Positions 28,941 through 38,322 of a stretch of DNA of 64,000 nt are shown here, one piece after another. The stretch lies in contig NZ_LN681226.1 in the NCBI RefSeq assembly GCF_000953655.1, positions 62,001-126,000 of the forward strand. The letters run 5' to 3'. The DNA comes from Legionella hackeliae (GTDB taxonomy: Bacteria > Pseudomonadota > Gammaproteobacteria > Legionellales > Legionellaceae). Both the position numbers and the translations under genes were made by a program. A model generated the notes under the pieces. The model made no database searches, was not told the DNA's origin, and saw only the letters and a list, made by a program, of their open reading frames with translations. Every line of letters begins with the position of its first letter. The stretch's first letter is position 1.

Positions 28941-30395
28941 ATGCATGCTGTAAGAGGTGAGAAAAAAGGAATAGTGTATTTACATTGGTTAAACGCAGTA
29001 ACTACATTTAGTTTTGCTATTTTATTTTCATCATTATCCCTTTATTTGACAAAGAACATTGGCTTAACTCAAATGCAATCCAATGGGGTCGTTGGATTTT
29101 TTCTTGCATCAAATTTCATTTTGCATTTTGTAGCTGGTTACATTGGGGACAGATTTTTAAGTAATCGATTGCTATTTGCCATTTCAACACTAATACAAAC
29201 TTTAGGCCTAATAGTCCTTAATTTTTCTGAGTCATTTGTATATCTAGGGTTAAGTTTGTTTCTTATCGGTTGCGGATTAGGATCTACATGTATTAATTGC
29301 CTTATTACCCAACAATTTACTAGTAACGAAAATGAATTAAGAGAAAAAGCATTTTTTTATAATTACAGCGCGATGAATATAGGGTTTCTCTCTGGTTATG
29401 TCATGAGTGGGTTTATTGATATTAACGATAGATACGATCGTTTATTTGAAGTAAGTAATTTGATTAATTTAATTACGGTGTTTTTCATAATTAAATCGTG
29501 GAGATATTTTGCAAAAGATAACGTAAATATCAGAGAGGAGATAAAGAGGGGGCAGCTAGGACTGGTATTAATCATACTAATTATACCTATCCTTCTAGTA
29601 GGGTTTTATTATTCCTGGTTAGCAAATAGCCTCATACTTTTTATTGGTGCTGCGGCATTATTATATATTACATTACTTGGACGTAGTTTAAGTCCGCATA
29701 ATGCACGGAAAAAAATTTATTCTTTTGTATTTTTAACTGGAAGTTCAATTGTATTTTGGATGCTTTATTTTGTAGGACCGATGGGTATTTCTCAATTTTT
29801 GAAGTACAACGTGAATATTTACATGGGTTCTTATTATATTCCTCCACAATGGTTAATGAATTTAAACTCAATTTTTGTAATTATTGGCTCACCTATAGCT
29901 GTCAAACTATTTGATAAATTAAGGAAGAAACAAATCACCATTTCCATATCAAAACAATTTATGAGTTCCTTACTGTTTATTGCTTTGTCGTTTTTGGCAT
30001 TGACTGTTGGCATAGAGAATTGTGGTACTGATGGATTAACTAGCATGAGTTGGATTATTGTGCATTATCTTCTTCAAGCAATAGGGGAGTTGCTTATTGC
30101 TCCTGTTGGTTACGCGATGATAGGAAGTCTTGCACCAGAAAAATTACAAGGGCTCATGATGGGTATATGGATGATGGCTTCAGGAATAGCAGCCACAATA
30201 TCCAATTATTTTTCTAATTTAATGACTCAATCTGAATCATTAAATCCTCTTATTAGTAATGAACACTATTTGGGCGCTTTTACCCAGCTAGGTTTTTATG
30301 CAATTTTGGGTGCACTTATTCTATGGTTTTGTTCTAAAACGATTGAGAATAGTATACAAAAAAACTCGACCGAAGCTATCAAGGGAATGGCATAA
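28941..30395 (+). CDS. POT-family (PTR2) proton-coupled peptide transporter
   Basis: A 484-residue membrane protein with about 12-14 hydrophobic segments. The N-terminus (FSFAILFSSLSLYLTKNIGLT) and the second-half motif AFFYNYSAMNIGFLSGYVM correspond to the PTR2 signatures of di/tripeptide:H+ symporters. A late APEKLQGLMMGIWMMASGIAATI stretch supports it. POT proteins carry di- and tripeptides and small peptide-like drugs. Its position before the ATP-grasp/YcaO operon makes it a candidate importer or exporter for that product. It ends one base before a converging gene. Confidence 0.8.
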   Translation: MHAVRGEKKGIVYLHWLNAVTTFSFAILFSSLSLYLTKNIGLTQMQSNGVVGFFLASNFILHFVAGYIGDRFLSNRLLFAISTLIQTLGLIVLNFSESFVYLGLSLFLIGCGLGSTCINCLITQQFTSNENELREKAFFYNYSAMNIGFLSGYVMSGFIDINDRYDRLFEVSNLINLITVFFIIKSWRYFAKDNVNIREEIKRGQLGLVLIILIIPILLVGFYYSWLANSLILFIGAAALLYITLLGRSLSPHNARKKIYSFVFLTGSSIVFWMLYFVGPMGISQFLKYNVNIYMGSYYIPPQWLMNLNSIFVIIGSPIAVKLFDKLRKKQITISISKQFMSSLLFIALSFLALTVGIENCGTDGLTSMSWIIVHYLLQAIGELLIAPVGYAMIGSLAPEKLQGLMMGIWMMASGIAATISNYFSNLMTQSESLNPLISNEHYLGAFTQLGFYAILGALILWFCSKTIENSIQKNSTEAIKGMA

Positions 30396-30396
30396 T

Positions 30397-31419
30397 CTAT
30401 TGTAACGATAATTCGGCCTGTAACTTAGATAATTTTGTTTCTTCTTGAGCTAATATTTTAAGAAAATTATCCAATATATTACGGTTTTTTATTGTTTTAA
30501 TATCTTTTTTAATACCATTAATAAGGCTTTGTTGAATTTGAAGGGATTTTTGCAATTCCTTGTTAGTACTTGGATGATGAGCCAATTCATAACCATTGCA
30601 TAAACGGTTATTCGTAGCTATCTCATCTAATCCAGAATAAGTACACTCTTCTTTCTTCAATTGCAGGCGGGCCGCCTTTTCTTGATCTTGCTTTTCTTGG
30701 TAATGTTTCCCTTCAGGAGAGTATTTATTAAATCCTTTGGGTGTTCTCCAGCGATTAGTGCGAAGAAGTTGAGAAATTATATTAATTTTGTGTTGAAAAG
30801 TGCCAATTTTTTGAAATTGCTCTTGGTTATTTAATGAAAATACCACCTCATCGAAGACTTTTTGTGGTGAGGATAGTTTTACTCCGTGTTGCTTTTGAAC
30901 ATTCAACAACATCCCTTTAACGATATTGAGCTCAGTAAATGGTAGTTTATTGTCTGAATTAGGAAAAGTAATATTATTAATTACTCTATTTTTTTCTTTA
31001 TTAATGGTATCTGTTGAAACAAGATAATCCATTCTCTCGTTTATATCCGGTTCAGGGGTAATCTCCTTTTCTTTTATCTCTATAATGGTTTCTGGTTCTT
31101 TGTAGATCAGTTGTAATTTGTTTTGAAGTGTTTCTGTAATAGCTATAAACGATCGAGGTACGCCGTAATATTTAAATCGTTTTCGAATAATTAGGCCTTC
31201 TTCTTCTAAGCTTTTTAGGTAGATGTATATTCTACTTTCACTAAACCCAAGTTCTGCAGCAAGATCAGGGATTTTCCTTGTAAACCATAATCTATTGTCA
31301 CGCTTTAAAAGAGTGCCTTGATGATGAAAAATTATTTTATCTAAGAGAAGTGCTTCTTTAGAGCATTTGGTTAATGAAAGAAGCTTGTTAAAGCCTAAAT
31401 AATAAATCGAATTATTCAT
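30397..31419 (-). CDS. winged-helix DNA-binding protein, plasmid-type
   Basis: A 340-residue protein whose first 95 residues form a winged helix: KIIFHHQGTLLKRDNRLWFTRKI, then DLAAELGFSESRIYIYLKSLEEEGLI. The middle is polar and the C-terminal third is a long Lys/Glu/Gln coiled coil. Such proteins are common in plasmid replication or regulatory regions, often annotated as replication or helix-turn-helix proteins. It is transcribed after the small HTH gene and converges on the transporter gene. A role in replication control or as a repressor is inference. Confidence 0.65.
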   Translation of the reverse strand: MNNSIYYLGFNKLLSLTKCSKEALLLDKIIFHHQGTLLKRDNRLWFTRKIPDLAAELGFSESRIYIYLKSLEEEGLIIRKRFKYYGVPRSFIAITETLQNKLQLIYKEPETIIEIKEKEITPEPDINERMDYLVSTDTINKEKNRVINNITFPNSDNKLPFTELNIVKGMLLNVQKQHGVKLSSPQKVFDEVVFSLNNQEQFQKIGTFQHKINIISQLLRTNRWRTPKGFNKYSPEGKHYQEKQDQEKAARLQLKKEECTYSGLDEIATNNRLCNGYELAHHPSTNKELQKSLQIQQSLINGIKKDIKTIKNRNILDNFLKILAQEETKLSKLQAELSLQ

Positions 31420-31440: not shown

Positions 31441-31635
31441 TTACTTAATTAACCCTGATGTAGTCAGCATATAAATTAACTGAGGCGTGGTTTTACAATT
31501 AAAGCTTGTTTTTAAGTCACTGAGTCGATAAAGAATGTATCTTTTTGACTTTTTTGTATCTTCTGCAATGTCATTCACATGACAGCCGCTGACTATCATT
31601 TTTATGATTTGATTATCCACATGATCGATTGTCAT
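31441..31635 (-). CDS. small stand-alone LuxR/GerE-like HTH protein
   Basis: Only 64 residues, entirely a GerE-type four-helix DNA-binding domain: IVSGCHVNDIAEDTKKSKRYI and LYRLSDLKTSFNCKTTPQLI. There is no receiver or sensor domain. GGAG stands six bases before the ATG at 31635. It is divergent from the 420-aa protein that opens the YcaO operon and sits next to a 12-bp palindrome, so it may regulate that operon. The next gene downstream is the 340-aa winged-helix protein, 22 bases away. Confidence 0.65.
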   Translation of the reverse strand: MTIDHVDNQIIKMIVSGCHVNDIAEDTKKSKRYILYRLSDLKTSFNCKTTPQLIYMLTTSGLIK

Positions 31636-31818: not shown

Positions 31819-33081
31819 ATGAGTGAATTATCGTGGGGTAAGGTAAAAACGGACATAGCTCGGGTTAACAAACGCCTCTATGAAGTATTGGAAACTATAG
31901 ACGGTATTCAAAATATGCTTTTTACTGTTCTTGAATATCAGTATGGGCAGATCATTGCAGATGAACACCATTTCTATTTACCAAATACGGGTGGCAGACT
32001 GTCTTCAGTTCCTTTTTCAATGGTTTTAGAAAAAAATCTTGAAATGTTTATTGAATTTAAAGGGAAGTCGAGTACACACCAGGTCTATAGAGAAGGAGAT
32101 TTTTTAAGCGTTAGTTCACTTTATAATGCTTCAAATACTCATCATCCTACTGATATATTACAAATATCCTCGGGCGCAAGGAATACATTCTTACTCTGTC
32201 CTGTGGCAGATGCAAGGCCTCATGCGAGTTTAGAAAAGTATTTTAAGGCAGATATTCCAGTCCCAGATGATCTTGGAAAACATTATTTAACCTTCAAAAG
32301 CTTATGTGATGCGGCTAATTGTAACTGGCGTTCAAGATTATTGGTATTTCCTTCTGAAATTGTAACCTTAATAAAAGAGAATAAATTACCTACTCTTTTG
32401 AGTTTAGTGATGGAGTTTGATTCTAATCAGACAGGATATTATGCAAATCTACCTTTTTATAATTATCTAATGGCTTATGTTCGGGCAAATAACCCCGAAA
32501 TATCTCAAAATGAATTCACTAATAATGCGATTAGCCAATTAATTACCATAGGAACGGGACAAGTTCCTGGCTACGGATTGGCTGTCGGTGATGATTTATT
32601 GCCCTTAGACTTTATTGTTGACTTATATCGCGATATATATAAATCCAAATACACTCCCTTTGTTATGGAGCCTGTGCATTTTGATAAAAATAAAAATGAT
32701 CCTGTTTTTTATTCAATACTCAAAGAAGAGATGGCTTTCAAACCAACATCATTTTCAAATAAACCACAGCGTTGTGAATTAATATTCGATACTTATTTAC
32801 AATATGCAGAACATATAAATAAATTAGGTCATTTCAAGAGTACGCCTTTTTTTGAAAGCGCAACGAATCTGGAGCTAACCCTTTTTCATGAAAAGAACAA
32901 CCAAGTGACTAATAACCTATTTAAGCTGCCTAGAGAGACAATTTTTTCTTACGATCCTCGTTTTTTAGAAGTAACTGATAAGCTTGGTTATTCAGTTGAG
33001 CAGTTTCCTTCGAAAACAACATTTTTAGTAGGATGTTTTGGTATTAAATATAATGAAAATAAAGAAACTGTTATGCATTGA
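31819..33081 (+). CDS. unrecognised 420-aa protein opening the YcaO operon
   Basis: I do not recognise the family. The protein is soluble, with no signal peptide or membrane segment. It begins SELSWGKVKTDIARVNKRLY and contains His-rich and acidic spots (HHFYLPNTGG, NTHHPTDILQIS, CPVADARPHASLEKYF) and a later segment LAVGDDLLPLDFIVDLYRD. These could bind metal or form an active site. The ATP-grasp gene starts 29 bases inside its 3' end, so it belongs to the same operon and is likely an enzyme or carrier-binding partner of that pathway. The ribosome binding site is weak. Confidence 0.7.
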   Translation: MSELSWGKVKTDIARVNKRLYEVLETIDGIQNMLFTVLEYQYGQIIADEHHFYLPNTGGRLSSVPFSMVLEKNLEMFIEFKGKSSTHQVYREGDFLSVSSLYNASNTHHPTDILQISSGARNTFLLCPVADARPHASLEKYFKADIPVPDDLGKHYLTFKSLCDAANCNWRSRLLVFPSEIVTLIKENKLPTLLSLVMEFDSNQTGYYANLPFYNYLMAYVRANNPEISQNEFTNNAISQLITIGTGQVPGYGLAVGDDLLPLDFIVDLYRDIYKSKYTPFVMEPVHFDKNKNDPVFYSILKEEMAFKPTSFSNKPQRCELIFDTYLQYAEHINKLGHFKSTPFFESATNLELTLFHEKNNQVTNNLFKLPRETIFSYDPRFLEVTDKLGYSVEQFPSKTTFLVGCFGIKYNENKETVMH

Positions 33082-34216
33082 TCCCCTTCAGGATTATGAA
33101 CTAATTGATTGTGATCTACTCATTCAATTAGGGATTTCTCCCATTTTTTTGATTAAAGATGTATCTAAATTTGTTAAGGACAGAGAAAATGTATTAGTAA
33201 GCTCATTTTCATTTGAAGATCTACTAGCTATTTGTGATTCGATTCGCCCTGATTATATAGTCTGTTTTTCGGAAGATATGTTTGTTGATATAGCAAAAGT
33301 CAGGGAAAATCTAAATATTGCAGGTATGAGCTTGAATACATCGATGCTATTAAGTCATAAAGATCTTATGTATCAAAAATTGGATGGTTTATTTTCATAT
33401 CCTAAAACAACTACATTGATTGAATCTTCAAACCTAAAATCAATCAAAGAAAAGATAGGTGTACAAGAGATATTTATTAAACCTATTAATTCCTCTGGTT
33501 CTTATGAGACATATCATATTAAAACCGAAGAGGAGTTTTGTAATTTTTTGCTCAATAAGAAAGAGAATGAGGAAAAATATATCGTTCAAGCTTATGTGGC
33601 AGATGATTTATACCATTCAGAATTGGCAGTATTTGATGGGAATATATTATTTGTAGAAGCCAGAAAATATACTCATCCAAATCATTTAATGGTCAGTAAA
33701 AATTTGCCTATATTTAGTCTGAATATTTTAGATGCACACCAGCGACAATTAATTTTGGATGCTTCGATTAAGGTGTGCCAGTTATTAGAATTCAATAACG
33801 GGGTACTTCACACTGAGTTTTTTATGAGTAAGGATGGTTATATTCAATTTATTGAAACCAATCCTAGACCTCCAGGTATTGGTCTAAATAAGCTATACCA
33901 GAAGAAATACTCCATAAGTCTTGAAACAATTTTATGTTGTATTGTTTGTGGGATTGAACCTCCTCGCTTGGTAAAGAATAAAAGCTATTACGTTTGTGGT
34001 TATTTTCCTACAAAGAACGGTGTTATAAAAAGAATTAATAAGCCTGAGCTTTCTGTACAAAATGAGTGGACACTTTTTGTTAGGCCAGATGATACCAGTG
34101 AGCAAATGGCGCATATGTCTAAGTCAGCGCTGGTAATTTGTTGGGATGATTCTATTACTGAAATAAATCAAACAGGAAACTTTCTTGCAGAGCAAGATAT
34201 TGTAGAAATATATTAA
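33053..34216 (+). CDS. ATP-grasp ligase (carboxylate-amine ligase type)
   Basis: A 387-residue ATP-grasp protein. After an N-terminal Rossmann-like part, the ATP-grasp region shows EIFIKPINSSGSYETYHI (nucleotide-binding Lys and Gly-rich loop), the YIVQAYVADDLYHSE strand, and the metal-binding GYIQFIETNPRPPGIGL. This pattern is shared with L-amino-acid ligases such as BacD-like enzymes, which join two amino acids through an acylphosphate. It starts 29 bases before the end of the preceding gene. Its presence with YcaO and TfuA suggests it builds or extends the substrate that is later thioamidated. Confidence 0.8.
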   Translation: MKIKKLLCIDPLQDYELIDCDLLIQLGISPIFLIKDVSKFVKDRENVLVSSFSFEDLLAICDSIRPDYIVCFSEDMFVDIAKVRENLNIAGMSLNTSMLLSHKDLMYQKLDGLFSYPKTTTLIESSNLKSIKEKIGVQEIFIKPINSSGSYETYHIKTEEEFCNFLLNKKENEEKYIVQAYVADDLYHSELAVFDGNILFVEARKYTHPNHLMVSKNLPIFSLNILDAHQRQLILDASIKVCQLLEFNNGVLHTEFFMSKDGYIQFIETNPRPPGIGLNKLYQKKYSISLETILCCIVCGIEPPRLVKNKSYYVCGYFPTKNGVIKRINKPELSVQNEWTLFVRPDDTSEQMAHMSKSALVICWDDSITEINQTGNFLAEQDIVEIY

Positions 34217-34365
34217 TTCTAAAAATCGATTATAGCCTCATTTTGGCTGCTGATGAGTTTTTAGTAAGGTCTTTAAACAGTTGTTCGTTCATATTTTCGT
34301 CACAATTGTTAAAAATATAAGTAAATTATATATGTCGTTTATACAAAAATCTACGGGTTATAGGA

Positions 34366-34617
34366 ATGCATAAATATCAATTAATAGAGTTTAATTCAGA
34401 TAGAAAACAAATCCAATTGGTTTCCAATAAATCAAATTTGCAACAAGTATTAGCAGAATTTTATAAAGAAAATTTTGAAAAGATGTTTGACGACAGTGGT
34501 TGTTCAAAGGGATATATTTCCGTATTTGTTAACTCAGAACAGATATCATCCATTAAAGACATTACTCTTAAACCTAATGATGAGGTGTGTATTGTAACTT
34601 CAATTTCAGGAGGGTAG
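34366..34617 (+). CDS. ThiS/MoaD-like sulfur-carrier protein ending in Gly-Gly
   Basis: An 83-residue ubiquitin-fold carrier. The diagnostic end is SISGG followed by the stop: the exposed C-terminal Gly-Gly is adenylated by an E1 and converted to a thiocarboxylate. EVCIVTSISGG follows the usual last strand of ThiS/MoaD. The E1/rhodanese gene starts five bases later, so the carrier and its activating enzyme are made together. It is not the thiamine or molybdenum-cofactor protein by context, as no thi or moa genes are present. Confidence 0.8.
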   Translation: MHKYQLIEFNSDRKQIQLVSNKSNLQQVLAEFYKENFEKMFDDSGCSKGYISVFVNSEQISSIKDITLKPNDEVCIVTSISGG

Positions 34618-34621
34618 TGGA

Positions 34622-35644
34622 GTGGATAGATACAAACGCCAAATTTCTGTTATTGGAGAACAAGGTCAAAAACTAATAAATAACGCAACAATTATGATCG
34701 TTGGACTCGGCGGGATAGGCAGTCCAGTAGCTCAATATCTTGCCGCAGCTGGTGTTGGAAAGTTAATTCTTGTCGACGATGATAAAGTAGATCTTTCTAA
34801 TTTGCATAGACAGATCTTATTTAATGAATCCGATATAGGGTTCTATAAGGCAGAAAAGGCGAGAGATGTTTTAAGTAAAGTTAATAAAAATGTGGTTATA
34901 GAGGCGCACACTAAAAGATTTGATGTGGATTTTGGCTATTCCTTAGTATCCGATATCGACTTGATCATCGACGGAACAGATAATTTTGAAACAAGATATC
35001 TTATTAACGATATTTGTGTTTTAAAGAATAAAGTATTTATCAGCTGTAGTATTTTGGTCAATATCATTCAGCTTGCTTTATTTGGTACAAAGCACCTTTG
35101 TTATCGTTGTCTATACCCTAATCCACCACCTATAGGTGTAATACCTAATTGTTCTGAAGCGGGTGTGTTAGGCACTGTGACAGGAATAGCAGGAACCATG
35201 GCTGCTAATCTGGCGTTAAATTACTTACTCAAGATAGAGAATGAGAAAGTACCACAGATACGAATAATAGATACAAAAAACTTCAACATCTCTTCGATGC
35301 CCATAAAGCAAAATAATAACTGTTTTGCATGTAAACAAAGAAAAATCAGCTTAAGGTATCTGCAAAATCAAAACGCTGATTATGGAATTTCCTTGGAGCA
35401 ACTTGATAGAACCAAACATTTTCTGGTTGATATAAGGCAAAAAGAAGAACGAGAGATTGCTAAGTTAGATGATGATCTATTTTTTCCTATAAAAGAGAAT
35501 ACTGATTATTCGTTTTTCTTATCGTATAAAGATAAAAAGTTGGTATTCTATTGTGCATCAGGATATCGAAGTAAATTGTTTGTATCAGAACTTAGAACCT
35601 TAGGCATTGATGCCTATTATCTTAATGAAAGGCTTTCTAAATGA
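34622..35644 (+). CDS. ThiF/MoeB-type E1 enzyme with a C-terminal rhodanese domain
   Basis: Residues 1-245 are an E1-like adenylyltransferase: RYKRQISVIGEQGQ, the nucleotide loop IVGLGGIGSPVAQYLAAAG, zinc-binding CYRC and CFAC, and the NCSEAGVLGTVTG segment containing the conserved Cys. Residues about 262-340 are a compact rhodanese domain with the active-site Cys in VFYCASGYRSK. Such MoeZ/MOCS3-like fusions adenylate a Gly-Gly carrier and load it with persulfide sulfur. Translation starts at GTG 34622 after AGGAGGG. YcaO overlaps its stop by four bases. Confidence 0.85.
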   Translation: MDRYKRQISVIGEQGQKLINNATIMIVGLGGIGSPVAQYLAAAGVGKLILVDDDKVDLSNLHRQILFNESDIGFYKAEKARDVLSKVNKNVVIEAHTKRFDVDFGYSLVSDIDLIIDGTDNFETRYLINDICVLKNKVFISCSILVNIIQLALFGTKHLCYRCLYPNPPPIGVIPNCSEAGVLGTVTGIAGTMAANLALNYLLKIENEKVPQIRIIDTKNFNISSMPIKQNNNCFACKQRKISLRYLQNQNADYGISLEQLDRTKHFLVDIRQKEEREIAKLDDDLFFPIKENTDYSFFLSYKDKKLVFYCASGYRSKLFVSELRTLGIDAYYLNERLSK

Positions 35645-36702
35645 TTTTTGAGCATACAGAAACGTCTTTAAGAGCTCGCAATTACGGCGAAACACTAAGC
35701 GTATTATCTCATTTCAAAAAACTGGCAGGAATTACACGATTAGCTGATTTAACCCATTTAGATTACACAGCATTACCTGTCTACACTGCAATAAGGCCTA
35801 GAGCAAAATCGTTAACTACGAGTCAAGGAAAAGGATTTACAAAAGAAGCGGCTCAGTGCTCGGCATTGATGGAGTCTATTGAAGTATATTTTGCTGAAGA
35901 ATTAGCTCCACAATTAACTAATAAGTCAGAGCTGGAGTTAGTTCAAGATAAAGCTGTTTTTTTACCAATAAATCATCTTTCAAAGTCTGTACATTTTAGT
36001 GATTCATCAAGACCAATGAATTGGGTACAAGCTGAATTAGTATTTGCAGAAAAAACCATTTTTGTACCTTTTTCTGAGTACTCACTAAATTCTTATTTGC
36101 CGGAAGTGTTGATTTACTCTCCTGATACAACCGGACTTGTGGGGGGAAATAATTATAAAGAGGCCCTTTTACACGGAATTCTAGAGGTGATAGAACGACA
36201 AAATGCGCAACAGATCTCTGAGATCGCTTTTGTTAATGGCAAAATGGTCAAAAATATAACAAAAAAATTTGATTGTCATATTTACTTTCATGAAAATATT
36301 TATGAAATTCCTTCGTTTGAGGTATTGATTAAATCAAAGAATCCTTTTGAAAATCAAATCCTATTTAAAGGAGGTGGATGTCATCTCAATAAACAAATAG
36401 CTTTAAATCGTGCACTGACGGAGGCCATTCAATCGCGAGTAACCACAATAGCAGGCTCCCGCGATGATTTGATTCATACTAAGTATGATTTTAAAACTAG
36501 TGAGTTTCCTGTTGTTACAGATAAAAAGGGTTTTGCTGAGCTGCCCAATTATTCGGTAGAGACGATAGACGATGCTCTTTCGGTTCTATTTGAAAAGATT
36601 AAGGGGAAGAATCAGGATATTTTAGTTTATAAATACTATGACAAAGAAATATGCATTTTAAAAGTAAAACTAGTTTCTATGGATTTGATAAGTCATGCAT
36701 GA
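35641..36702 (+). CDS. YcaO-family ATP-dependent enzyme
   Basis: YcaO proteins phosphorylate an amide backbone oxygen and let a nucleophile replace it, giving azolines, amidines or, with TfuA, thioamides. The conserved blocks are present: SLTTSQGKGFTKEAAQCSALMESIE (ATP-binding Glu residues), GLVGGNNYKEALLHGILEVIER, and HLNKQIALNRALTEAIQSR. Length 353. It overlaps the E1 gene by four bases and the TfuA gene by eight. The lack of a cyclodehydratase partner (E1-like C protein) and the presence of TfuA point to thioamide rather than azole formation. Confidence 0.88.
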   Translation: MIFEHTETSLRARNYGETLSVLSHFKKLAGITRLADLTHLDYTALPVYTAIRPRAKSLTTSQGKGFTKEAAQCSALMESIEVYFAEELAPQLTNKSELELVQDKAVFLPINHLSKSVHFSDSSRPMNWVQAELVFAEKTIFVPFSEYSLNSYLPEVLIYSPDTTGLVGGNNYKEALLHGILEVIERQNAQQISEIAFVNGKMVKNITKKFDCHIYFHENIYEIPSFEVLIKSKNPFENQILFKGGGCHLNKQIALNRALTEAIQSRVTTIAGSRDDLIHTKYDFKTSEFPVVTDKKGFAELPNYSVETIDDALSVLFEKIKGKNQDILVYKYYDKEICILKVKLVSMDLISHA

Positions 36703-37729
36703 AACCGTCGTTTTTTTAGAAACTTCCTTAACCTATCAAGAGGCGATACATCTACTTCCCCATGCGATGTATTTACCTTCAATCAAAAAGGGAGATGTGC
36801 TTAAAGCAATAAAAGCAGGATATAAACGGATAGTTATCATCGATGGAAATTTTTCCTGGGTTCCTTCTGTGTGGCATAAAGAAATATTAACAGCATTAGA
36901 CTACGGTATTGAGGTTTGGGGTGCGGCTTCAATGGGTGCTTTAAGAGCAGCGGAGCTGGATTCTTTTGGAATGAGGGGGCATGGACGTATATATGAGATG
37001 TATAAGAATGAAGAAGTAGATGGTGACGATGAAGTGGCAATTGCTTATTCTAAATTCAATAACGTACAAACTATTCCTTTAATCAATATCCGCCTAACGC
37101 TTGAACGACTAAATAGTATTAATAATGAAACTGTTTTAAATTCAATACGATCCATTTTTTATGCTGAAAGAACTTGGGTGAAAATTGCTCGACACGTGTC
37201 AGAAGATCTTTATCATTTGATTAAATCTAATTATATAGACGCAAAAAAAGAGGATGCAAAGTCGTTATTGCTTTCTTTAAACCAACAACACATTCTTTCT
37301 ACGGTTTCTGATTTAAATAGAAAAAAAAGAGAGTTTACTCTTTTTGAAAAAAAATTAATTGAGTCTACTTTGTCTTCTGTTTGGTTGCGTGCTCCTATGC
37401 ATGAGCAGACAGAATGTTCAGCTTCTCAACAGAGGGCGGAAAATATTCTTAAATTACTATCAATTCCTGAAACAAAAAAGAATAGGATCCATTATCAATA
37501 CTTACTGTCTCTTCTTGATCAACAAACGTACGCAATTACAGAATACGAGCTTATATATCAAGTCGAACAATTTAGAGAGGAGCATAATTTGTTAAAAGGA
37601 GAGGATTTTTTTAACTGGTTAAAGGACATGGGATTGCATGAGTCTAACCTAGAACAACTCTTTACCGATTATGTAAAACTTATGAAACATTTGATAATTA
37701 CCTACGATTTCAATAGTTATTTTAATTAG
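36695..37729 (+). CDS. TfuA-like protein
   Basis: TfuA proteins work with YcaO enzymes; in the archaeal methyl-coenzyme M reductase system and in thioamide peptides they supply or channel sulfur. The signature is clear: VWGAASMGALRAAELDSFGMRGHGRIYEMY at residues about 68-98. The rest is a helical C-terminal half of unknown role, making it longer (344 residues) than the minimal TfuA domain. Eight-base overlap with YcaO indicates tight coupling. It closes the operon. Confidence 0.85.
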   Translation: MHETVVFLETSLTYQEAIHLLPHAMYLPSIKKGDVLKAIKAGYKRIVIIDGNFSWVPSVWHKEILTALDYGIEVWGAASMGALRAAELDSFGMRGHGRIYEMYKNEEVDGDDEVAIAYSKFNNVQTIPLINIRLTLERLNSINNETVLNSIRSIFYAERTWVKIARHVSEDLYHLIKSNYIDAKKEDAKSLLLSLNQQHILSTVSDLNRKKREFTLFEKKLIESTLSSVWLRAPMHEQTECSASQQRAENILKLLSIPETKKNRIHYQYLLSLLDQQTYAITEYELIYQVEQFREEHNLLKGEDFFNWLKDMGLHESNLEQLFTDYVKLMKHLIITYDFNSYFN

Positions 37730-37772
37730 CCTATTCATCCTAAAAAATATTTTCACTTTTTTCTTATCCTTG

Positions 37773-37790
37773 CACCTAGGTGAATGCACC
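37773..37790. promoter_or_regulatory. nested inverted repeats before the CsrA-like operon
   Basis: CACCTAGGTG (37773-37782, perfect) is followed by GGTGAATGCACC (37779-37790), so CACC, GGTG and CACC half-sites alternate. They lie about 55 bases before the small gene that precedes the csrA paralogue. A repressor site controlling entry into the transfer region is plausible. Confidence 0.4.
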
Positions 37791-37841: not shown

Positions 37842-38027
37842 ATGACTGTAGAACAAGAAGTATTTGATATTTTAGAGAGTTGTATTTCCTGTTTGCAACA
37901 GGCGGCCCTAAACATAGGTGGCTTTGATTTTGATAAACATGCACAAGCAGCGATATATGCTTATTCATTATTAAGGAGGCAGCAGTTGTTTTTAATGTAT
38001 CCGATCGAGAATGAAACAGTGCATTAA
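37842..38027 (+). CDS. small protein upstream of the CsrA paralogue
   Basis: A 61-residue protein (MTVEQEVFDILESCISCLQQ at the start, then a helical AAIYAYSLLRRQQLFL segment). No domain is recognised. It is cotranscribed with the CsrA-like gene 34 bases downstream. In Legionella mobile elements the CsrA paralogue (called LvrC or CsrT) is preceded by small lvr-type genes, so this may be an equivalent; that identity is by position only. Confidence 0.55.
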   Translation: MTVEQEVFDILESCISCLQQAALNIGGFDFDKHAQAAIYAYSLLRRQQLFLMYPIENETVH

Positions 38028-38061: not shown

Positions 38062-38322
38062 ATGTTGATTTTAACACGTAGGGTAGGAGATACCGTAGTT
38101 ATCGGAAATGAAGTATTTTGTACTGTCTTAGAGCAACAACACGATGGCCAAATAAAGCTGGCATTTGATGCGCCAAAGTCTATTCCTATTCATCGCTTTG
38201 AGATTCAAAAGCAAATTATGCAAAAGATTATAGAGGGGACCTATACGAATGATGTGGCATGGAATGAAACAGTGATTGAGCGTTTAACGAGTCAGTTTAA
38301 TAGGGTATCTCACTGGAATTAA
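38062..38322 (+). CDS. CsrA paralogue (CsrT/LvrC type)
   Basis: CsrA proteins bind GGA motifs in mRNA leaders. The start MLILTRRVGDTVVIGNEVF and the segment IKLAFDAPKSIPIHRFEI are unmistakable, including the Arg/Glu positions of the RNA-binding face. At 86 residues it is longer than housekeeping CsrA (about 61-65) by a C-terminal tail. Paralogues at the head of transfer regions in Legionella elements control conjugation and can alter host traits such as motility. It lies directly upstream of traT and the tra operon. Confidence 0.85.
   Translation: MLILTRRVGDTVVIGNEVFCTVLEQQHDGQIKLAFDAPKSIPIHRFEIQKQIMQKIIEGTYTNDVAWNETVIERLTSQFNRVSHWN

What the first reader, a model, noticed from the sequence alone, without database searches (positions are those of the whole stretch)
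31819..37729. Complete thioamide-type biosynthetic operon on a conjugative element
Six tightly packed, mostly overlapping genes: an unrecognised 420-aa protein, an ATP-grasp ligase, a Gly-Gly sulfur carrier, an E1-rhodanese, a YcaO and a TfuA. Established knowledge: YcaO with TfuA makes thioamides, and E1/carrier/rhodanese sets deliver protein thiocarboxylate sulfur. Having sulfur delivery, amide activation and an ATP-grasp ligase in one operon on a transfer element is, to my knowledge, not a described system.
Basis: partly seen in the sequence, partly recalled or inferred. Interest (0 to 1): 0.88.

Follow-up and report, generated by a model that had tools for sequence, protein, structure and literature searches.

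The report
Plasmid peptide-thioamide gene cluster in Legionella
A Legionella plasmid carries a conserved gene set that most likely replaces an oxygen by sulfur in the backbone of a small peptide, built around a protein family of unknown function whose relatives sit beside other peptide-modifying enzymes.

Summary
All six genes are real and placed as stated. They lie on a 129,882-bp contig with plasmid and F-type transfer genes and recur on six Legionella plasmids typed conjugative. All six are under purifying selection. Three rearranged relatives at 22-43% protein identity keep the same set. YcaO and TfuA resemble the archaeal McrA-thioamidation pair; the operon's E1 is the host genome's only ThiF-family protein.

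The unrecognised 420-aa protein (ORF1) belongs to an undescribed family: 54 of 143 genomes searched in the order, 22 of 369 drawn from the class. Its relatives lie beside transporters, YcaO-TfuA, or a borosin-type peptide N-methyltransferase, which in 17 of 21 loci directly follows a small precursor-like ORF. The ATP-grasp/carrier gap hides a conserved antisense 20-codon ORF.

Best reading: a ribosomal-peptide (RiPP) pathway making a short thioamidated peptide. The YcaO-TfuA chemistry is known; this architecture and the ORF1 family look undescribed. Product, precursor and ORF1 function are unproven.

The parts
28941..30395 (+). POT-family oligopeptide:H+ symporter, probable product transporter
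   Evidence: Pfam PTR2 E 4e-29, NCBIfam TIGR00924 over cut-off. Annotated beside the operon on 5 of 5 plasmids opened (the sixth was not opened); also in L011/L034 and L035, and in rearranged L096 (43% identity). dN/dS 0.11.
31819..33081 (+). ORF1, 420 aa, orphan family; proposed common precursor-handling or maturation protein
   Evidence: No Pfam, NCBIfam, PHROG or PDB family. Lowest dN/dS of the six, 0.036. Family distribution and neighbours.
33053..34216 (+). ATP-grasp ligase, L-amino-acid-ligase-like
   Evidence: Pfam ATP-grasp_4 E 1e-7; nearest PDB sequence 4wd3 L-amino acid ligase E 4e-16, then BacD E 3e-5.
34230..34292 (-). Antisense 20-codon ORF MNEQLFKDLTKNSSAAKMRL, candidate precursor peptide
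   Evidence: Intact in 9 of 9 representative haplotypes; 0 of 20,000 column shuffles as coding-like. Against: no sigma-70-like promoter found, ribosome-binding energy near zero in the window's own copy.
34366..34617 (+). ThiS/MoaD-type sulfur carrier ending in Gly-Gly
   Evidence: Pfam ThiS E 3e-6; C-terminal SISGG invariant except the Ser in 6 aligned copies plus L035 SITGG.
34622..35644 (+). E1 adenylyltransferase with C-terminal rhodanese-like domain
   Evidence: Pfam ThiF E 3e-67; nearest PDB sequence E. coli ThiF E 6e-40; invariant CASG.RS loop and zinc-type cysteines in 6 copies (their role is recalled).
35641..36702 (+). YcaO
   Evidence: Pfam E 1.5e-35; NCBIfam TIGR00702 over cut-off, McrA-thioamidation model below cut-off; nearest PDB MJ1094 E 1e-20. 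Only YcaO in the genome.
36695..37729 (+). TfuA
   Evidence: Pfam E 1.8e-35; NCBIfam NF033432 170.6 bits, under its cut-off of 235.2; PDB 6xp8 E 9e-37.
37771..37788 (.). Conserved 18-nt element TGCACCTAGGTGAATGCA, 41 nt after the TfuA stop, function unknown
   Evidence: In the 17 loci aligned and in 36 of 126 loci held (some overlap one another), none of them L096-L098; once in the whole genome at up to 3 mismatches.
37842..38027 (+). 61-aa ORF downstream of TfuA, rival candidate for a small partner
   Evidence: In 6 PLSDB records, the same 6 that carry the operon; in L035, not in L034; dN/dS 0.06; no Pfam or PHROG family.

Best explanation
A mobile RiPP-type (ribosomal peptide) pathway. A short gene-encoded peptide is translated; the best candidate in this operon is the antisense 20-mer. 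E1-rhodanese adenylates the Gly-Gly carrier and turns it into a thiocarboxylate; TfuA passes that sulfur to YcaO, which uses ATP to convert a backbone amide of the peptide into a thioamide. The ATP-grasp enzyme joins an amino acid to the peptide or forms another amide. ORF1 carries out or scaffolds a step common to several peptide chemistries (recognition, release or closure of the peptide). The POT protein moves the small product across the membrane. Shown: gene identities, intact families, conservation of the set, coding signature of the 20-mer, and ORF1 relatives beside peptide-backbone enzymes and transporters. Inferred: every reaction, the substrate, ORF1's role and the direction of transport.
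For: The same seven-gene set is kept in rearranged relatives at 22-43% identity: L096 with POT; L097 and L098 with a 470-aa protein that has no Pfam match in its place. YcaO and TfuA match thioamidation-type structures. Of 19 genomes, 8 have no ThiF-family protein outside these clusters (G447 by position only), G000 among them; the relative without E1/carrier at the locus has an E1-type protein elsewhere. ORF1 relatives occur within 3 genes of a transporter in 22 of 40 non-edge non-redundant cases vs 4 of 40 control genes, and of a borosin-type N-methyltransferase in 12 of 54 (enzyme identity E 4e-51). In 17 of 21 such loci a small ORF lies directly upstream of that enzyme. ORF1's link to YcaO needs at least 3 changes on the tree. 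The ATP-grasp/ThiS gap holds a small ORF in L096-L098 too, with a shared C-terminus SLN(S/T)I..I. 20-mer: close haplotypes show 19 synonymous vs 8 nonsynonymous changed codons, the best sense frame 10 vs 17.
Against: No product, expression or substrate evidence. The 20-mer is antisense, without a recognised promoter, and 4 of 9 haplotypes, the window's included, show no ribosome-binding signal. It is unlike the sense ORFs of L096-L098, whereas the unstarted sense frame of the same block reads SLNSCSFI, like their tails. No protease was found among the cluster genes identified. 25 of 57 ORF1 relatives have no YcaO, N-methyltransferase or SAM-methyltransferase nearby, and no family of precursor-like small ORFs was recognised around the non-Legionellaceae ORF1 loci searched.
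Confidence: 0.5

Rival explanations
1. Non-ribosomal small thioamide: the ATP-grasp ligase joins free amino acids into a dipeptide, YcaO-TfuA thioamidates it, POT moves it; ORF1 supplies or modifies a building block.
For: ATP-grasp is nearest to L-amino acid ligases RizA-type 4wd3 and BacD; POT proteins are di/tripeptide transporters; L053 has ORF1 with two ATP-grasps, an alanine-dehydrogenase-like protein and a POT.
Against: ATP-grasp is absent beside YcaO-TfuA and ORF1 in L057 and L012, and precursor-like ORFs exist in N-methyltransferase relatives.
Confidence: 0.2
2. Same RiPP pathway but the precursor is another ORF: the 61-aa ORF at 37842-38027, or an unrecognised one elsewhere on the plasmid.
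For: The 61-aa ORF is on 6 of 6 operon plasmids and on no other PLSDB record at E<=0.01, with dN/dS 0.06.
Against: Absent after TfuA in L034; separated from TfuA by 112 nt with the 18-nt element.
Confidence: 0.13
3. ORF1 itself is the thioamidated protein, as McrA is in methanogens.
For: ORF1 is the most conserved product (dN/dS 0.036); nearest characterised YcaO/TfuA models are the McrA pair.
Against: ORF1 relatives pair with transporters and with unrelated peptide enzymes; in N-methyltransferase loci a separate small ORF fits the substrate role.
Confidence: 0.07
4. The sulfur ends in another group: an azoline, or a thiocarboxylate as in PDTC and thioquinolobactin (recalled), not a thioamide.
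For: E1/carrier/rhodanese sets feed thiocarboxylate pathways (recalled); YcaO proteins also make azolines.
Against: TfuA is present; YcaO scores 148 bits for the general model but far below the azole-type SagD cut-off (62 vs 219).
Confidence: 0.1

Closest known systems
Thioamidated RiPPs made by YcaO-TfuA (thioamitides, thiovarsolins; PMC8120280, passages seen)
   Same: Adjacent ycaO-tfuA; short peptide substrate proposed; transporter nearby.
   Different: Own carrier and E1-rhodanese, L-amino-acid-ligase-like ATP-grasp, ORF1, antisense mini-ORF. That paper's passages mention ThiF with archaeal clusters; ATP-grasp and Legionella have 0 occurrences in its main text.
McrA glycine thioamidation, archaeal YcaO+TfuA (PMC5589413, listing only)
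   Same: Nearest curated models and nearest PDB sequences.
   Different: Scores under the equivalog cut-offs; bacterial plasmid; substrate differs.
Split borosins (PMC11395268, passages seen)
   Same: ORF1 relatives lie beside borosin-type N-methyltransferases that follow small precursor-like ORFs.
   Different: The window operon has no N-methyltransferase; ORF1 is not part of borosins as far as those passages and the searches showed.
MoaD/ThiS carrier with MoeB/ThiF-type E1-rhodanese sulfur delivery
   Same: Domains and Gly-Gly terminus.
   Different: Placed inside a YcaO-TfuA operon on a plasmid.
L-amino acid ligases RizA and BacD
   Same: Nearest solved relatives of the ATP-grasp.
   Different: Partner genes; only distant similarity.

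Membership tests
YcaO-TfuA thioamidation cluster | YcaO and TfuA encoded side by side | tested here: met
YcaO-TfuA thioamidation cluster | Ribosomal precursor peptide in the cluster | tested here: inconclusive
   Antisense 20-mer with coding signature, role unknown.
YcaO-TfuA thioamidation cluster | Backbone thioamide in the product | not testable with these tools
   No chemistry available.
McrA glycine thioamidation | Curated equivalog cut-offs of the YcaO and TfuA models | tested here: not met
   132.9 vs 365 and 170.6 vs 235.2 bits.
Azole-forming TOMM (SagD) cluster | SagD-family YcaO score over cut-off | tested here: not met
   62.2 vs 219.25 bits.
Protein-thiocarboxylate sulfur delivery | Carrier ending Gly-Gly plus E1 with rhodanese domain | tested here: met
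   the rhodanese Pfam match is 0.5 bit under its cut-off.
Borosin RiPP | Peptide alpha-N-methyltransferase in the cluster | tested here: not met
   None among the genes annotated; present only near ORF1 relatives.

The most novel reading that the evidence does not exclude
ORF1 defines a new RiPP superfamily of Legionellaceae and some other gammaproteobacterial lineages: one unknown 420-470-aa protein handles short ribosomal peptides whose backbone is either thioamidated by YcaO-TfuA or N-methylated by a borosin-type enzyme, and the plasmid version carries its own sulfur supply and an antisense 20-codon precursor gene.
Probability: 0.35. Interest if true: 0.86.

Novelty: new variant of a known kind. 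Interest (0 to 1): 0.7.

Why it matters
If right, a widespread protein family with no annotation marks a previously unseen group of peptide pathways in intracellular bacteria and links two rare backbone chemistries, thioamidation and N-methylation, through one shared protein. It would also be a conjugative thioamide pathway that brings its own E1 to hosts, some of which have no other ThiF-family protein, and a case of a RiPP precursor hidden antisense in an intergenic gap.

Tried and rejected
ORF1 as RiPP precursor: rejected as less likely because ORF1 is the most conserved protein, its conserved core runs almost to the end, and N-methyltransferase relatives have a separate small ORF.

Profile search of PDB sequences gave nothing better than E 0.55. 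Pfam and NCBIfam scans of 40 members gave only scattered single hits, best Bystin in one member at E 0.0025, and nothing shared by more than 2. Conserved polar residues: E75 and D379 in all 57 non-redundant members, H357 and C406 in 93%. A Ser-His-Asp or His-Asp-Cys site was considered and dropped because L034 and L035 have Asn at 357.

A sense 13-codon ORF just before ThiS (MSFIQKSTGYRNA in the window) was dropped: absent in L020 and L035. The sense reading of the 20-mer block was considered because its SLNSCSFI resembles the L096-L098 tails; it has no ATG/GTG/TTG start in L020 or L034 and a worse codon signature. It stays unexplained.

Search of viral contigs with ORF1 found no relative. Precursor search around the non-Legionellaceae ORF1 loci found mainly CsrA-like genes. 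L052's 25-aa upstream ORF was set aside; L089, L094 and L101 gave none.
Full report
WHAT IS THERE. The six ORFs are present as described with the stated families, except that ORF1 matches nothing. Three of five junctions overlap; a 149-nt gap separates ATP-grasp and ThiS. The window is bases 62001-126000 of a 129,882-bp contig of a two-contig, 3.57-Mb genome. ParA, ParB and Rep3 genes lie upstream, TraT and TrbI/TraB-type genes downstream.

WHERE ELSE. In PLSDB the 7-kb stretch matches six Legionella plasmids at 80.8-92.7% nucleotide identity (L. longbeachae x4, L. sainthelensi, L. fallonii); a seventh record, a Vibrio one, matches over 2% only. The six are typed conjugative. Of 11 Legionella records with TraC at 60% identity or more, six carry the operon, five of them at TraC 96-97%. 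In one (NZ_CP020895) TraC is only 66% identical while the operon stays at 92.7%, so operon and transfer genes are not strictly linked. In GTDB contigs ORF1 led to 11 loci, all Legionella or Legionellaceae. Ten keep the six-gene order; L034 has ORF1, ATP-grasp, YcaO and TfuA without ThiS and E1.

SELECTION. Against L. fallonii dN/dS is 0.036 (ORF1), 0.086 (ATP-grasp), 0.143 (ThiS), 0.102 (E1), 0.129 (YcaO), 0.194 (TfuA), 0.111 (POT) and 0.061 (61-aa ORF).

A SET THAT SURVIVES REARRANGEMENT. Loci L096, L097 and L098 have ORF1, ATP-grasp, ThiS, E1, YcaO and TfuA at 22-40% identity to the window, with ORF1 and E1 on the strand opposite the rest. L096 also has the POT (43%); L097 and L098 have at that place a 470-aa protein, which in L097 has no Pfam match. 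More distant relatives: L057 has POT-ORF1-E1-YcaO-TfuA, L012 has ORF1-MFS-YcaO-TfuA, and L078 has E1-YcaO-TfuA about 3.7 kb from an ORF1.

SULFUR SUPPLY. A ThiF-family search of 19 genomes found one protein in the window's genome, the operon's E1. Counting by position, 8 of 19 have none outside these clusters (G000, G447, G462, G467, G470, G482, G496, G497; for G447 the second match is 5.2 kb from an ORF1 relative and that locus was not fetched). Ten have a further one. G041, the genome of L034, which lacks E1 at the locus, has one elsewhere. So the operon can be self-sufficient for the E1 step. Cysteine desulfurase supply was not examined.

THE ORF1 FAMILY. A profile of seven ORF1 copies matched 22 of 369 genomes drawn from the class. 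A 40-member profile matched 54 of 143 genomes of the order and, in a draw of 398 from the phylum, only the window's own. Both hit counts include the window's genome. The phylum draw says the family is rare, not absent. Genomes hold up to five copies. Of 96 genes, 54 remained at 70% non-redundancy. Within three genes I found a transporter in 26, a borosin-type N-methyltransferase in 12, a SAM-methyltransferase in 8, YcaO/TfuA in 5 and ATP-grasp in 4. Away from contig edges a transporter was near in 22 of 40, against 4 of 40 control genes from the same loci (transporters called by a crude hydrophobicity rule). On a tree of 57, the YcaO label needs three changes, and well-supported branches force three. 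25 of the 57 carry none of the labels YcaO, N-methyltransferase or SAM-methyltransferase within six genes.

THE N-METHYLTRANSFERASE LINK. One such neighbour matches dbOphM at E 4e-51 and SonM at E 2e-48 among PDB sequences. In 17 of 21 loci an ATG ORF of 50-77 aa ends within 30 nt of its start or overlaps it by up to 5 nt, for example MSLIYMLEKMAYEPLSD...FACETHVVSVN (L092) and MSLMDKLEYAVGNEYL...DSNKIVSI (L090). Several of the 21 are close relatives, so these are not 17 independent cases. This makes ORF1 a partner of peptide-backbone enzymes rather than a precursor.

THE HIDDEN 20-MER. On the minus strand of the ATP-grasp/ThiS gap lies MNEQLFKDLTKNSSAAKMRL (34292 to 34230). All 8 haplotypes from 32 loci (many near-identical or duplicate records) are intact, and so is L034. 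Of 20,000 column shuffles 412 had no stop and none was as coding-like. Against the window, close haplotypes show 19 synonymous and 8 nonsynonymous changed codons; with the two distant ones 25 and 28; the best sense frame 10/17 and 18/37. Mean ribosome-binding energy is -2.8 against -0.93 for shuffles (none of 500 as low), but 4 of 9, including the window, are at or above zero. No sigma-70-like promoter was found. In the same slot L096 and L097 have ATG-started and L098 a GTG-started sense ORF ending SLNTIELI, SLNSISLI and SLNSIDFI. The unstarted sense frame of the window's block reads SLNSCSFI, which I cannot explain.

MECHANISM. From recalled knowledge of the families: rhodanese persulfide, adenylated carrier, carrier thiocarboxylate, TfuA hand-over, YcaO O-phosphorylation of a backbone amide and replacement of oxygen by sulfur. 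The ATP-grasp, nearest to L-amino acid ligases, would add an amino acid. ORF1's step and the direction of transport are guesses.

LITERATURE. Searches for YcaO+TfuA+ThiF, Legionella+YcaO, borosin+Legionella (0 papers), borosin/YcaO combinations, YcaO+ATP-grasp+thioamide, Legionella+thioamide and Legionella+gene clusters showed no description of this operon in the listings. PMC10434180 (section 5 and passages read) reports that 34% of Legionellales plasmids carry predicted clusters, so tools may already have flagged it. PMC5126622 (passages) surveys Legionella clusters; YcaO has 0 occurrences in its main text. Supplements were not available, and most subscription papers are not held.

Noticed in passing
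L086-L095, L099, L101, L102, L104, L105, L118, L124: Legionellaceae loci that pair ORF1 relatives with borosin-type N-methyltransferases, mostly with a small precursor-like ORF upstream and an MFS or POT transporter near; ordinary split-borosin-like clusters not named in the Legionella papers listed.
   Followed up: partly
window 37771-37788: 18-nt conserved element after TfuA, present in all 17 type-1 loci aligned, once in the genome; function unknown.
   Followed up: partly
window 31441-31635 (-): 64-aa ORF with HTH-like look (recalled), conserved in L020, L034 and L035, no Pfam match.
   Followed up: no
window 30397-31419 (-): 340-aa protein between POT and ORF1, conserved in 32 loci; weak match to phage replication initiation proteins, so perhaps plasmid upkeep rather than pathway.
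   Followed up: partly
window 38062-38322: CsrA-like gene; CsrA-like small genes also lie near ORF1 relatives in L053, L056, L070, L077 and L081.
   Followed up: no
L013-L016: Other Legionellaceae YcaO-TfuA-E1 clusters without an ORF1 relative in the stretch held, some with two YcaO genes.
   Followed up: no
L122, and G496:C2:77619-78869 (L119): ORF1-family copies reported with stop codons inside the matched stretch, possible decay; not restored.
   Followed up: no
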